This document shows, piece by piece, positions 6,170-10,937 of a stretch of 14,161 nt of DNA (positions within the stretch are counted from its first letter, which is position 1; every line of letters begins with the position of its first letter). The notes under the pieces are model-generated. The model saw only the letters and a program-made list of their open reading frames with translations, was not told the origin of the DNA and ran no database searches. The stretch covers positions 1 to 14,161 of the forward strand of contig JAFAQO010000662.1 in NCBI GenBank assembly GCA_019246375.1, written 5' to 3'. The DNA is from Mycobacterium sp. GTDB lineage: Bacteria; Actinomycetota; Actinomycetes; Mycobacteriales; Mycobacteriaceae. The position numbers and the translations under genes are program-made.

Positions 6170-8506
6170 TCAACCGTCCCTTACCGACGCGGCAGTCCGT
6201 TGATCGTCCCGGTATGCCGTGGCCGCGGGGCTTGCCGCGGTTGGGATGGCTGCGTGCGCCGCCGGCGCACCGGACTCGCTAATTCCGACCCGATCATGCA
6301 GCCACACCAGGGGTTTGGGCGCCCACCAATTCCACCGGCCCAGCACATGCATGAACGCGGGAACCAGCACCATCCGCACCAAGGTGGCGTCCGCCAGCAC
6401 GGCAAGTGTCAGGCCGACACCGAACATCCGCATGAACGACACCTGAGCGGCGATCAGCGCCGCGAACGAAATCGACATAACCAGGGCAGCGGCGGTGATC
6501 ACCCGGCCGGTGCGGGCTACTCCGAGTGCCACACACTCGTCGTTGGTAGCGCGCCCGTCGGTCGCGGTCATCGACCGGGCGGCTCCCTCTTCCAGCCAGT
6601 ATTCGCGAATTCTCGAGACCAAAAACACCTCGTAATCCATCGACATCCCAAAGGCGACGCAGAACAACAACACCGGGATGTTCGCCACCAAAGTCCCGCT
6701 AGGAGTTGTCCCCAAAGCGCGGAGATGGCCGTCCTGGAAGATCCACACCAGCGCGCCGAACGCCGCCGTCAGCGACAGCACGTTACATACCAGCGCCTTG
6801 AGCGGCAGCACCACGCTGCCGGTCAGCAGGAACAGCAGCACGAAAGTGATCACGGCGATCAGGCCCAGTACGAGCGGCAGTCGCGTCGTGATGGCCGCGA
6901 CGCTGTCGCGGTTGATCTGTGCCAGACCGGCCATCTGAACGGATCGGCCCGCCGGACCGGACACTTCGTGCAAACGGTCGAGCTGGGTGCCGGACGCTCG
7001 CGAGAACAGCGGCGCTGTGCTGGCGACAGTGAGAAATGCGCTGCCGTCGGCCAGACCGGTCGGGGCGGCGGGCGGCGCAACCCGGTTTCCGGCGACGAAC
7101 GTCCCCGTCGGGGCGCTTACCGACGACACGTCGGGCACCCGCGACAGTTCGGCGGCGTAGCGCTCGATGTCCGCGGGGCTCAGGCCACGGGCATCAGGGA
7201 TGACGATGCGCACCGCCGTCGACGAGTTGTCGGTGAAATCGTTGCGTAACTGGTCACCAACCAGGTGGGCAGACGCTGAACTCGGCAGCACACGGTCGTC
7301 GGGGAAGCCCCACTTCACGCCTAGGAAGGGGATCCCAAGGACCAGCAGTAGCGCAACGACAGCCAGACCGATGGGAACCGCACGGCGCATCACAAATTTG
7401 GTCGACCGGTACCAGAACTGCTGCTCGACCGCTTTGTGGGCCGGGTCGGGGCGACGCAATATGCGACGAGCCAGCCGGCGCATGTCCAGCGCATCCAGCC
7501 GTGACCCCAGCAGCGCGATCGCAGCCGGTGTCACCACAATCGCCGCCACCGCAACGAATGCCACGGTGGCAATACCGGCGTAGGCGAATGACTTCAGAAA
7601 GTACATCGGAAACAGCACCATCACGGACATCGACAGAGCAACGGTGGTCGCCGAGAACAGCACCGTGCGGCCCGCGGTAGCCATCGTGCGGATCAGCGCC
7701 TCGTCTCGGGCGGCGCCCTCGACCAGCTCGTCGCGGTAGCGACTGACGATCAGCAGCGTGTAGTCGATCGCCAAGGCCAGCCCCATCGCGCTGCTCAGGT
7801 TGAGCGCGTATGTCGACACATCGGTGGTGAAGGAGATCAGCCGCAGCACCGACATCGAGCCGACGATCGCCAAACCGCCCAGCGTCAACGGCAAGGCGGC
7901 CGCCAGAAGTCCACCGAACACCCAGACCAGCACCACGAAGCTCAGCGGTATCGCGATGGCCTCCATGAGCAGCAGGTCGCGTTCGTTCTGGTGATTGATC
8001 TGCGCGTAAATCATCGCCGCACCGCCCGCGCGGACGGTCACGCCGTCCCGGTCGTGCACCAGTTGATGAGACAGCGTTTGGGCGTGCTTTTGGGCGTTGT
8101 TTTCACCACCTTTGAGGTTCGCCACGATCAAGCCGGACTTGCCGTCCTTGCTGACCAGATCCGCGGCGGCCTGGGGCGGTGAAGTCCACGTCGAAGACAC
8201 GTTGAAAACCAGCGGTGACTGTTTCAGCTGCTCGACGATGTCCGTGCCGACCCGGCGGGCCTGCTCGCTGCGGGCGCCACCTGGCGCCGTCAGCACAAGC
8301 AGCATCTGCTGATCGCTCTGGCCGAATTTATCCGTCAACAGGTGGACGGCCTGCGCCGACTCCGACTTCGGGTCTTGGAAGCCGCCGGCGGCCAGGCTTT
8401 TGGCGACCGGTATGCCGAAGATCGCCGCTCCCAGCAGGACCAGGGTGGCTACCCCGATGATTCGTCGCGGCGCGGCGATGGCAAGTCGGGCGATTCCCTG
8501 CAGCAT
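6170..8506 (-). CDS. mmpL13: MmpL13, RND-superfamily lipid transporter, intact
   Basis: This is a 778-aa inner-membrane protein with the MmpL duplicated layout. An N-terminal transmembrane helix (about residues 15-35) is followed by a periplasmic domain and a block of helices, then a second copy of the same arrangement. The paired proton-relay Asp-Tyr dyads of MmpL transporters are both visible: LALAIDYTLLIVSRYRDEL in the first block and FGMSMDYEVFLVSRIREYW in the second. MmpL proteins export lipids or siderophores using the proton gradient; this one's substrate is unknown. The C-terminal tail is short and Ala/Asp-rich, without the long cytoplasmic domain of MmpL3. The start at ATG 8506 has AAGGA 6 bases upstream, which is better than an in-frame start at 8539. 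H37Rv carries this gene as mmpL13a plus mmpL13b (303 and 470 aa as recalled), so here it is full length. It is first in an operon with TetR and methyltransferase genes. Confidence 0.95.
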   Translation of the reverse strand: MLQGIARLAIAAPRRIIGVATLVLLGAAIFGIPVAKSLAAGGFQDPKSESAQAVHLLTDKFGQSDQQMLLVLTAPGGARSEQARRVGTDIVEQLKQSPLVFNVSSTWTSPPQAAADLVSKDGKSGLIVANLKGGENNAQKHAQTLSHQLVHDRDGVTVRAGGAAMIYAQINHQNERDLLLMEAIAIPLSFVVLVWVFGGLLAAALPLTLGGLAIVGSMSVLRLISFTTDVSTYALNLSSAMGLALAIDYTLLIVSRYRDELVEGAARDEALIRTMATAGRTVLFSATTVALSMSVMVLFPMYFLKSFAYAGIATVAFVAVAAIVVTPAAIALLGSRLDALDMRRLARRILRRPDPAHKAVEQQFWYRSTKFVMRRAVPIGLAVVALLLVLGIPFLGVKWGFPDDRVLPSSASAHLVGDQLRNDFTDNSSTAVRIVIPDARGLSPADIERYAAELSRVPDVSSVSAPTGTFVAGNRVAPPAAPTGLADGSAFLTVASTAPLFSRASGTQLDRLHEVSGPAGRSVQMAGLAQINRDSVAAITTRLPLVLGLIAVITFVLLFLLTGSVVLPLKALVCNVLSLTAAFGALVWIFQDGHLRALGTTPSGTLVANIPVLLFCVAFGMSMDYEVFLVSRIREYWLEEGAARSMTATDGRATNDECVALGVARTGRVITAAALVMSISFAALIAAQVSFMRMFGVGLTLAVLADATLVRMVLVPAFMHVLGRWNWWAPKPLVWLHDRVGISESGAPAAHAAIPTAASPAATAYRDDQRTAASVRDG

Positions 8507-8561
8507 GTCGGGTCCTTCCACTGCCGATACCGGTCGCATCCTGGACGCAGCTATCGACGGT

Positions 8562-8647: not shown

Positions 8648-8785
8648 TGGTTCACGGCGTTGCCAGGGTTTCTCGATGGCGCGTCGCCCGTCAGCCGATT
8701 GGATTGGGGGACCGCAACCCTACCCGGCGGTAATATTGCCACGATTTTCCGAAACGTAACTCAATGATTCCTTAATAGTGACCCA

Positions 8786-8791
8786 TAGGCT
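8786..8791 (+). promoter_or_regulatory. -10 element TAGGCT for the 43-aa ORF
   Basis: TAGGCT is followed by 7 bases (CGGGTCC) and the ATG at 8799, suiting leaderless initiation. The same hexamer serves two other genes in the window. No clear -35 element was found. Confidence 0.6.
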
Positions 8792-8798
8792 CGGGTCC

Positions 8799-8930
8799 AT
8801 GTGGATCGACGACTCCAGTGCGGACGTCATCAAGGCTGATTTCGAGGCTCTCTACAACGGCGATGTGCTCGTGGAGGGAGAAACCTCGGAGCAGCTCGAC
8901 GACTGGCACCCACTGCCTACTGCGAGCTGA
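8799..8930 (+). CDS. Orphan small acidic protein, 43 aa
   Basis: The ORF starts ATG TGG ATC GAC at 8799 and ends TGA at 8928-8930. It encodes MWIDDSSADVIKADFEALYN, then GDVLVEGETSEQLDD and WHPLPTAS. It is acidic, with two tryptophans, no cysteine and no membrane segment. By my count 33 of 43 codons end in G or C, in line with neighbouring genes. A -10 box stands 7 bases before the ATG, and a 9-bp hairpin begins 4 bases after the stop, so it looks like a complete one-gene transcript. It is convergent with the SDR gene and on the strand opposite the mmpL13 operon. I do not recognise the family. The alternative is a chance ORF in a regulatory region. Confidence 0.65.
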   Translation: MWIDDSSADVIKADFEALYNGDVLVEGETSEQLDDWHPLPTAS

Positions 8931-8933
8931 GCT

Positions 8934-8965
8934 GTCGCGGTCGCCGCTAGCGCAGTGACCGCGAC
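8934..8965 (+). terminator. Hairpin after the 43-aa ORF, likely terminator
   Basis: GTCGCGGTC (8934-8942) and GACCGCGAC (8957-8965) pair over 9 bases around a 14-base loop. It begins 4 bases after the small ORF's stop and lies before the convergent SDR gene, which ends at 9049. There is no U-tract. Confidence 0.55.
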
Positions 8966-9048
8966 CGCAAGCGAGGTGCGTTAGCCCTCAGTCGTGGCTT
9001 TGTCGTTTTCCTTTTCCCAAATTCCGGCGTCTGGTCGGCAAGCAAGCG

Positions 9049-9801
9049 TTACCGCGGAGCCATCCGGATGGCGCCGTCTAAGCGGATGACCTCGCCGTTG
9101 AGCATTGGGTTTTCGATGATGTGCACGGCCAGCGCCCCGTATTCGTCCGGTTTGCCCAGCCGCGATGGGTGCGGCACTTGCTTGCCGAGCGACTCCTTGG
9201 CTGGCTCGGGCAGGCCGGCCAGCAGCGGAGTGTCGAACAGGCCCGGGGCAATGGTCACCACCCGAATGCCTCTGCCGGCCAGATCGCGCGCGATAGGCAG
9301 GGTCATGCCGACGACACCGCCCTTGGACGCCGAGTAGGCGGCTTGACCGATCTGGCCGTCGAATGCCGCCACCGAGGCGGTGTTGATGATGACGCCGCGC
9401 TCTTCTCCGATCAAGTCGGTCTTGGCGATCCGCTCGGCGCCCAGCCGCAGGACGTTGAAGGTGCCGACCAGGTTAATGTCGACGACCTTGCGGAACGCTT
9501 CCAGCGGGAAGACACCGTCCTTGCCGAGCACCCGGATCGCGTTGCCGGTGCCGGCGCAGTTGACGATGATGCGCAGTGGGCCTAGCGTCGCCGCGAGATC
9601 AAGAGCCTGGGACACGGCGGCTTCGTCGGTGACGTCGGCCGGCGCGAAACGCGCGCGATCGCCGAGCTCGCGGACCACCCCTTCACCTTTGAGGTCCAGC
9701 ACCACCACATTTGCGCCAGCGTCAAGAAGCCGCTTGGTGGTGGCCAGGCCCAGCCCGGACGCCCCGCCGGTGACGACTGCAGCGGCGTCGTTGATCTCCA
9801 C
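9049..9801 (-). CDS. SDR family 3-hydroxyacyl-CoA dehydrogenase-like enzyme (Rv1144-like)
   Basis: With GTG 9801 the protein has 250 residues, as I recall for Rv1144. It is a classical short-chain dehydrogenase/reductase. The cofactor motif TGGASGLG spans residues 11-18. Asp36 at the end of strand 2 (VVVLDLK) favours NAD over NADP. NCAG is at 81-84. The catalytic set is Asn110, Ser143, Tyr156 and Lys160 (YSASK). The overall pattern, including [23 protein letters not shown], resembles type-2 3-hydroxyacyl-CoA dehydrogenase (HSD17B10-like), which oxidises short or branched 3-hydroxyacyl-CoAs. AGGA lies 9 bases before the GTG; a longer in-frame start at 9843 is unlikely. It follows the racemase gene by 53 bases on the same strand, so the two probably work together in branched-chain acyl-CoA or sterol side-chain oxidation. 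Confidence 0.92.
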
Positions 9802-9854
9802 GCGAGTCTTTCCTTTCGTGCGGCCGATCCGGCCGTCAGCCAACTGGTCGTGGA

Positions 9855-10937
9855 CTATAGCCAGTCGTTGAGCACCGCTTCGGTGTCGGCTCCCGGCTGA
9901 CCCGGCGGCCGGGGTTCGTCAGCGACGGTGCGGGAAAACCGCGGCGCCGGCAACGGTTGCAGTCCGCCGTCGACGTTATGGAAGGTGTTTCGCTGCGTGA
10001 CGTGCGCCTCGGTCTCTACCTCACCGAATGCCAGCACCGGTGTCACACAGGCATCGGAATCAGCGAAGACCTTCGCCCAATGGTCGCGGTCGCGGCTGGC
10101 GAACACGTCGGTGAGCCGGGCCCGCAGCTCGGGCCAGCGGGTGCGGTCGTTCTGCTCGGGCAGGTCGGCCGCGTCCAGGCCCAGCCCGGCCAGCATGGCC
10201 GCATAGAACTGCGGCTCGATGGCACCGACCGCGACATAGCGACCGTCGGCGCATTCGTAGGTGTCGTAGTACGGCGCGCCGCCGTCGAGCATGTTGGTGC
10301 CGCGCTCGTCCGACCACATGCCCATGCCGCGCATTGCCCACATCATCTGCACCAGCACGGACGACCCGTCGATCATCGCGGCGTCGATCACTTGGCCTTT
10401 ACCGGAGGTCTGCCGCTCCCACAGGGCGGCCAGGATGCCGACCAGCAGGAACATCGAACCACCACCGAAGTCGCCGACCAGGTTCAGCGGCGGCACCGGC
10501 CGGTCGTTGACTCGGCCGATGGCGTGCAGGATGCCGTTGAGCGAGATGTAGTTAATGTCATGGCCGGCTTGCTGGCTGCGCGGACCGGTCTGACCCCAGC
10601 CGGTCATCCGGGCGTAGACCAGCCGCTCGTTGACCCGCCTACAGTCGTCGGGGCCCAAGCCCAGCCGCTCGGTGACGCCCGGGCGGTAACCCTCGATCAG
10701 CACGTCGGCCTTCGCGACGAGCTTCAGCACGAGGTCTCGTCCCTGCTCGGATTTCAGGTCCGCGACAAGGAAGCGCCGGTTGCGCAGCATGGCGTCGCGG
10801 ACCGGGCCGCTGGTGGCGGTGGGCCGCTCGATGCGCACGACCTCGGCGCCGAGGTCGCCGAGGATCATTGCGGCGTGCGGGCCCGGCCCGATTCCGGCGA
10901 GCTCGATGACTCGCAAGCCTGTCAACGGTCCCGCCAT
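9855..10937 (-). CDS. mcr: Alpha-methylacyl-CoA racemase (MCR, Rv1143-like)
   Basis: The protein has 360 residues, identical in length to M. tuberculosis MCR, and belongs to CoA-transferase family III. The three residues known to be catalytic in MCR fall at the same numbers here: His126 in AGHDINY, Asp156 in LVGDFGGG and Glu241 in GAIEPQF. The N-terminus [20 protein letters not shown] and [13 protein letters not shown] are typical of the family. The enzyme interconverts (2R)- and (2S)-methylacyl-CoA by deprotonation and reprotonation at C2, which allows beta-oxidation of methyl-branched fatty acids and the cholesterol side chain. It is cytoplasmic and dimeric with interlocked subunits in the known structure. 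A perfect AGGAGG lies 7 bases before the ATG at 10937. It is divergent from the crotonase gene and precedes the SDR gene. Confidence 0.96.

What the first reader, a model, noticed from the sequence alone, without database searches (positions are those of the whole stretch)
8786..8965. Complete orphan 43-aa gene between the mmpL13 operon and the lipid-oxidation block
Seen: a -10 box 7 bases before an ATG, a 43-codon ORF with 33 of 43 codons ending in G or C, and a 9-bp hairpin 4 bases after the stop. Inference: it is an independently transcribed small protein gene, missed by standard gene finding because of its size. The protein is acidic, has two Trp, and matches no family I know. It starts about 230 bases from the mmpL13 promoter on the opposite strand, so it might act on that operon or on the membrane.
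Basis: partly seen in the sequence, partly recalled or inferred. Interest (0 to 1): 0.7.

Follow-up and report, generated by a model that had tools for sequence, protein, structure and literature searches.

The report
Conserved 43-residue leaderless mycobacterial gene
A tiny protein gene that looks like an orphan in this stretch of DNA is kept in nearly all mycobacteria examined, including the shrunken leprosy bacillus, and matches a spot where an abundant tuberculosis transcript was listed as non-coding RNA.

Summary
The 43-codon ORF at 8799-8930 (+) is a real protein gene. A relative was found in 388 of 396 genus genomes (359 of 361 good ones) and none convincing elsewhere in the family. Its frame is under purifying selection: median pN/pS 0.105, against 0.25-0.29 for four neighbouring genes. 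A TANNNT box lies 7 nt before the ATG in 109 of 112 distinct loci and 6 nt before it in the other three, so a leaderless mRNA is predicted. A conserved 40-bp element lies upstream; a 30-base pattern from it matched once per genome, only here, in 10 of 10 genomes. The gene does not depend on mmpL13: in M. leprae the neighbours are degraded and this gene is intact. It is not wholly new: a 2016 paper places the M. tuberculosis homologue RVBD_1144Ac at "non-coding RNA" MTS0900 and reports a ribosome-protected M. abscessus homologue. Added here: genus-wide proof of coding, promoter architecture, the element, independence from neighbours, and a second 20-residue micro-ORF (pN/pS 0.25) gained once in a slow-grower clade, absent from this window. 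Function is unproven; I favour a soluble, partner-dependent regulatory microprotein.

The parts
8735..8774 (+). Conserved upstream element, consensus ATTGCCAnnaTTTTCCGAAtCGtGACTCAanGAtTCCTTA (positions -64 to -25 from the ATG); putative regulator-binding region
   Evidence: Mean 1.6 bits per column over -66 to -25, 0.52 over -90 to -67, in 109 loci. A 30-base pattern from it, up to 3 mismatches, occurs once per genome in 10 of 10 genomes and 0 times in the control
8786..8791 (+). -10 box TAGGCT (TANNNT class), 7 nt before the ATG
   Evidence: TANNNT at exactly this spacing in 109 of 112 distinct loci, 6 nt in L031, L105 and L185. Position agrees with the mapped M. smegmatis -10 motif (PMC6448022)
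8799..8930 (+). 43-aa protein gene MWIDDSSADVIKADFEALYNGDVLVEGETSEQLDDWHPLPTAS; the predicted mRNA start is the A of the ATG
   Evidence: 388 of 396 genus genomes; pN/pS 0.182 and 0.105 against the window
8934..8965 (+). GC-rich hairpin just after the stop; possible 3' end of the transcript
   Evidence: 9-bp arms 8934-8942 / 8957-8965, stem in the predicted fold; no T-run, terminator scan negative
6170..8539 (-). mmpL13-like transporter gene, 789 aa (MMPL domain); neighbour, not part of the unit
9049..9843 (-). SDR family oxidoreductase; convergent neighbour, not part of the unit
9855..10937 (-). CoA-transferase family III gene (mcr-like); neighbour

Best explanation
A separately expressed gene for a 43-residue acidic cytoplasmic microprotein. 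Shown by comparison: coding frame, start codon, genus-wide conservation, promoter box and dedicated upstream element. Inferred: a SigA-type polymerase, helped by a regulator on the 40-bp element, starts transcription at the A of the ATG, and ribosomes load directly on that leaderless end. Inferred and least certain: the nearly invariant first 32 residues (MWIDD..ADVIK.DFEALYHGD.LVEG..SEQ) form a short amphipathic helix and strand only on binding a conserved mycobacterial partner, and tune that partner during growth, while the tail is free to vary. My odds: real gene 0.97, leaderless 0.9, soluble partner-binding regulator 0.45. In one slow-grower clade the same transcript also carries a 20-residue cationic microprotein.
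For: Conservation in 388 of 396 genus genomes. pN/pS 0.182 and 0.105 against the window, neighbours 0.25-0.29. TANNNT-N7-ATG in 109 of 112 loci, with C at -1, as in mapped M. smegmatis starts (PMC6448022). ATG or GTG at the 5' end suffices for translation in mycobacteria (PMC4633059 abstract passage). The homologue MAB_4988c is ribosome-protected (PMC4974804). MTS0900 is abundant in exponential phase, RPKM 312, and lower in stationary phase, 49 (PMC3207917). In M. leprae the gene and element are intact amid degraded neighbours. The model has one helix (5-19) and low confidence, pLDDT 62.8, pTM 0.18, which fits a protein without a stable fold of its own.
Against: Partner and phenotype are unknown. 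The low-confidence model may only reflect a shallow, uniform alignment. G031, a single-contig genome rated 100% complete, lacks both gene and element, so it is dispensable at least once. Several codons (1-5, 10-11, 18-21, 31-32) are also nearly fixed at third positions, which could mean an RNA-level constraint or codon preference.
Confidence: 0.6

Rival explanations
1. Dual-function RNA: the transcript encodes the protein and also base-pairs as a regulatory sRNA.
For: Listed as sRNA MTS0900. Some codons are nearly fixed at third positions. The fold of 8799-9010 is more stable than shuffles, z -2.25.
Against: Over the whole ORF, synonymous divergence is not lowered: median pS 0.488-0.496 against 0.426-0.498 in neighbours, and lower than mcr in only 20 of 70 loci. 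Sequence after the stop differs between clades.
Confidence: 0.13
2. Purely non-coding sRNA; the ORF is incidental, as the 2011 listing assumed.
For: PMC3207917 describes its sRNA candidates as lacking an obvious ORF.
Against: pN/pS 0.182, alternative frames above 1.5 or full of stops; changes concentrated at codon position 3 (entropy 0.79 against 0.21 and 0.14).
Confidence: 0.02
3. Local regulator of mmpL13 or a membrane accessory.
For: It lies 260 bp from the mmpL13 start on the opposite strand; mmpL13 is found next to it in 71 of 76 named loci with enough flank.
Against: Present without mmpL13 in 5 of those 76 and at a different locus in G088; intact beside degraded mmpL13 in M. leprae; soluble, acidic sequence.
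Confidence: 0.05
4. Leader peptide or attenuator for a downstream gene.
For: Many leaderless small mycobacterial ORFs sit at the 5' ends of operons (PMC4633059 passages).
Against: The next gene downstream in the window is convergent (9049-9843, minus strand). Where ORF2 exists it is 20 codons, then a terminator-like hairpin.
Confidence: 0.03
5. Toxin-antitoxin-like pair: the acidic 43-aa protein neutralises the cationic 20-aa ORF2 peptide.
For: ORF2 follows directly in 63 of 112 distinct loci, is under selection (pN/pS 0.253) and is basic (pI 12) and amphipathic. In M. uberis ORF2 is lost and ORF1 kept, the expected order.
Against: ORF1 is older and wider than ORF2, so neutralising ORF2 cannot be its original role; no toxicity data; no match to a known toxin was sought beyond PHROGs.
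Confidence: 0.08

Closest known systems
RVBD_1144Ac / MAB_4988c, small ORF reported in PMC4974804 (2016), at ncRNA MTS0900 of PMC3207917 (2011)
   Same: Same interval between the SDR (Rv1144) and mmpL13 (Rv1145) genes, opposite strand, conserved in mycobacteria, ribosome-protected in M. abscessus
   Different: The paper calls the translation evidence conflicting and, in the section read, gives no start, promoter, element, codon statistics or second ORF; here these are supplied. No function in either place
Leaderless small-protein genes of mycobacteria (PMC4633059)
   Same: ATG placed where the TANNNT box predicts the RNA 5' end; under 50 codons; conserved
   Different: The examples in the passages seen sit upstream of operon genes; this one stands alone or with ORF2 and has its own 40-bp conserved element
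Dual-function sRNAs such as SgrS/SgrT (described in PMC11133741)
   Same: A short transcript first listed as sRNA that encodes a small protein
   Different: No base-pairing target and no lowered synonymous divergence

Membership tests
RVBD_1144Ac / MAB_4988c sORF | Lies between the Rv1144 and Rv1145 orthologues, antisense to both | tested here: met
   SDR 9049-9843(-), mmpL13 6170-8539(-), ORF (+); orthology to Rv1144/Rv1145 by recalled gene names and order, matching
RVBD_1144Ac / MAB_4988c sORF | Sequence homology to the M. tuberculosis and M. abscessus ORFs themselves | tested here: inconclusive
   Divergent homologues found in G088, G147 and G220 (51-54% identity), probably the M. abscessus group but unnamed; no M. 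tuberculosis sequence obtained
Leaderless small-protein gene | TANNNT -10 box 6-7 nt upstream of the start codon | tested here: met
   109 of 112 at 7 nt, other three at 6 nt
Leaderless small-protein gene | RNA 5' end maps to the start codon | not testable with these tools
Leaderless small-protein gene | Frame conserved as protein | tested here: met
   pN/pS 0.182, 0.105
Dual-function sRNA | Nucleotide-level constraint beyond coding, or a base-pairing target | tested here: inconclusive
   pS not lowered overall, some codons nearly fixed; no target search done
Toxin-antitoxin pair | Two adjacent co-conserved genes | tested here: not met
   ORF2 absent in 49 of 112 distinct loci, ORF1 present in all by selection of the set; one-clade gain
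Any curated protein family | Significant profile match | tested here: not met
   Pfam (best E 0.13, DUF5809, 2 of 20 members), NCBIfam, PHROGs, PDB sequences: none significant

The most novel reading that the evidence does not exclude
One of the most abundant 'non-coding' RNAs of growing M. tuberculosis is really the leaderless mRNA of a genus-defining microprotein under its own dedicated regulatory element, kept by M. leprae when its neighbours decayed; and in a slow-grower clade this mRNA gave birth de novo to a second, 20-residue cationic microprotein that works with the acidic one.
Probability: 0.3. Interest if true: 0.8.

Novelty: new member of a known kind. Interest (0 to 1): 0.52.

Why it matters
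It turns an orphan ORF into a testable core gene of mycobacteria. It suggests that a transcript listed among the top sRNA candidates of M. tuberculosis should be treated as an mRNA, explains why database entries usually carry a wrong start (103 of 120), and offers a case of a short gene apparently born next to an older one, with a dated clade. Retention in M. leprae points to a function that matters even in a reduced, host-bound genome.

Tried and rejected
Rejected: the longer GTG start at 8778 (7 extra codons with pN/pS 1.30; in-frame TGA there in G005 and G014). Rejected: phage origin (no DNA match in 50,697 phage records) and a known RNA family (Rfam gathering threshold, 0 hits). Rejected: a regulon of the upstream element at up to 3 mismatches (one site per genome in 10 of 10; 0 of 23 in two ORF-less genus genomes and 21 genomes outside the genus). 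Weaker or half sites were not searched, so a wider regulon is not excluded. Rejected: ORF2 copies elsewhere (8 of 16 genomes have it, single-copy; two further hits at E 0.46 and 0.95 looked like chance by eye). Rejected: weak matches outside the genus (4 genomes, E 0.019-0.093, partial, inside frames of 205-373 aa). Dropped rows: two regex hits (L034, L125) lack the WFR ending and were not counted as ORF2; one search used only the 85 distinct 43-aa sequences out of 99; one search used the first 33 codons of the ORF and all 43 codons of 72 loci; the tree used loci with at least 300 aligned mcr residues. One search's table was cut in the middle; one search recounted mmpL13 and SDR over all 80 named loci. 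The gene that lies between the ORF and the SDR in some loci was not identified.

Full report
What was checked. The window is a mycobacterial contig (G000:C62, draft 81% complete). At 8799-8930 on the + strand lies a 43-codon ORF, with TAGGCT 7 nt before the ATG and a 9-bp hairpin 3 bases after the stop. All large neighbours near it are on the minus strand: mmpL13-like 6170-8539, SDR 9049-9843, CoA-transferase III 9855-10937.

Is it a gene? Yes. A tblastn with 50 aa matched 291 of 297 genus genomes (273 of 274 good ones); a profile matched 388 of 396 (359 of 361 good). The eight misses are G008, G031, G070, G126, G260, G268, G489 and G551; six are 55-73% complete, G551 is 98% complete in 640 contigs, and G031 is one contig at 100%. 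In the family search, 15 genus genomes matched strongly and the other 186 gave only four weak partial matches. Over 85 distinct 43-aa orthologues pN/pS is 0.182 (1,500 sampled pairs); four of the other five frames exceed 1.5 and the fifth, at 0.23, has stops in 84 of 85. Against the window the median is 0.105 over 72 loci with all 43 codons, or 0.09 over 80 loci with the first 33 codons, while SDR, mcr, mmpL13 and cobB give 0.28, 0.26, 0.291 and 0.253 over 69-71 loci. The protein is thus held more tightly than its neighbours.

Where does it start? The seven in-frame codons upstream of the ATG evolve without protein constraint (pN/pS 1.30), and in G005 and G014 they hold an in-frame TGA while the 43-aa frame is intact. 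A TANNNT box sits exactly 7 nt before the ATG in 109 of 112 distinct loci, and 6 nt before it in L031, L105 and L185; position -1 is nearly always C (1.82 bits). In M. smegmatis the mapped -10 motif ANNNT or TANNNT lies at -6 to -13 and C is common at -1 (PMC6448022, section read). The predicted transcript start is therefore the A of the ATG, and leaderless translation needs only ATG or GTG at the 5' end (PMC4633059, abstract passage seen). Of the 120 listed database hits, 103 carry a longer N-terminus, which reads the promoter as protein.

A dedicated element. From -64 to -25 (8735-8774) lies a block more conserved than third codon positions: 1.6 bits per column over -66 to -25, against 0.52 over -90 to -67. 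A 30-base pattern from it, with up to 3 mismatches, matched exactly once per genome in 10 of 10 genomes, each time just before this ORF, including the divergent G088; the control gave none. It was absent from G031, G551 and 21 genomes outside the genus. The binding factor is unknown. Sites with more mismatches, or half sites, were not searched.

Not a servant of its neighbours. In 5 of 76 named loci with at least 3 kb on that side, all Mycolicibacter, mmpL13 is missing; in 5 of 75 with at least 2.6 kb on the other side the SDR gene is missing. In G088 none of the window's neighbours is found within 17.5 kb. There the 43-aa frame, the -10 box and the element (0 mismatches) are intact. Retention in a decaying region is strong evidence for a function of its own.

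A second micro-ORF. In 63 of 112 distinct loci a 20-22 codon ORF, M(S/G)xLARLLMAEPxxxRWFRR, starts 2-10 nt after the stop and is followed in most rows by a terminator-like hairpin (rows inspected by eye). Over 56 distinct sequences pN/pS is 0.253, with position 3 most variable. On an mcr tree of 72 loci, 46 have it and all lie in one clade of 47 (SH-aLRT 100, quick method); the only exception is M. uberis, where it is decayed. This fits one gain and one loss, though tree counts cannot prove direction. It is single-copy in 8 of 16 genomes searched and absent in the rest, the window's genome included. It is present, intact, in M. leprae. The loci sampled overlap and are not a random draw.

What is already in print. 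PMC3207917 (section 12, part 1 read) lists MTS0900, reverse strand, between Rv1144 and Rv1145, as the second of its intergenic sRNA candidates by exponential RPKM (312; stationary 49), not marked as verified, in a set described as lacking an obvious ORF. PMC4974804 (section 7 read) places RVBD_1144Ac there, says it was deleted from later annotation, names MAB_4988c as a ribosome-protected homologue, and calls the indications conflicting. Searches for these names found only those two papers, and a search for the letters MWIDD found none; most subscription papers are not held. PMC9094748 and PMC11133741 were seen in passages only; neither set of passages names this ORF, and their supplements could not be read. 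I did not obtain M. tuberculosis DNA, so that link is the paper's plus agreement in strand and neighbours.

How it may work. Shown: coding, start, promoter box, element, conservation, independence. Inferred: leaderless expression at high level in growth, under a regulator on the element. Inferred with less certainty: the invariant part (residues 1-32) binds a conserved partner. AlphaFold2 on 40 sequences gives one helix (5-19) at pLDDT 62.8 and pTM 0.18, so the model does not support a stable fold and was not used for fold search. An RNA role beside the protein is not excluded: overall synonymous divergence is not lowered, but some codons are nearly fixed and the RNA folds better than shuffles (z -2.25).

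Verdict. The gene belongs to a known kind (conserved leaderless small proteins) and has been glimpsed in print. What it does remains open.

Noticed in passing
L055:6139-6198 and the other ORF2 loci: A second conserved 20-22 codon micro-ORF (M(S/G)xLARLLMAEPxxxRWFRR) directly downstream in one slow-grower clade, decayed in M. uberis.
   Followed up: yes
G137:C3:91875-92330 (L183) and G152:C33:232447-232872 (L184): Two tandem copies of the 43-aa gene, each with its own element and TANNNT-N7-ATG. Nine of 396 genomes gave two matches; only these two were looked at.
   Followed up: partly
L056, L058, L104, L108, L115, L122-L129: An extra stretch of roughly 0.9-1.1 kb, by eye a minus-strand gene, lies between the ORF and the SDR gene in these loci. 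Not identified.
   Followed up: no
window 8778-8798: Database entries for this family mostly start upstream and translate the promoter (103 of 120 listed).
   Followed up: yes
window 6170-8539: mmpL13 is one uninterrupted 789-aa frame here; in M. tuberculosis it is recalled as split into mmpL13a and mmpL13b (Rv1145, Rv1146).
   Followed up: no
G031: A single-contig genome rated 100% complete without the ORF or the element; whether by loss or early branching was not tested.
   Followed up: partly
PMC11133741 passages: Another listed sRNA of the same 2011 table, MTS0903, has also been proposed to encode a small protein, so further entries of that table may be mRNAs.
   Followed up: no
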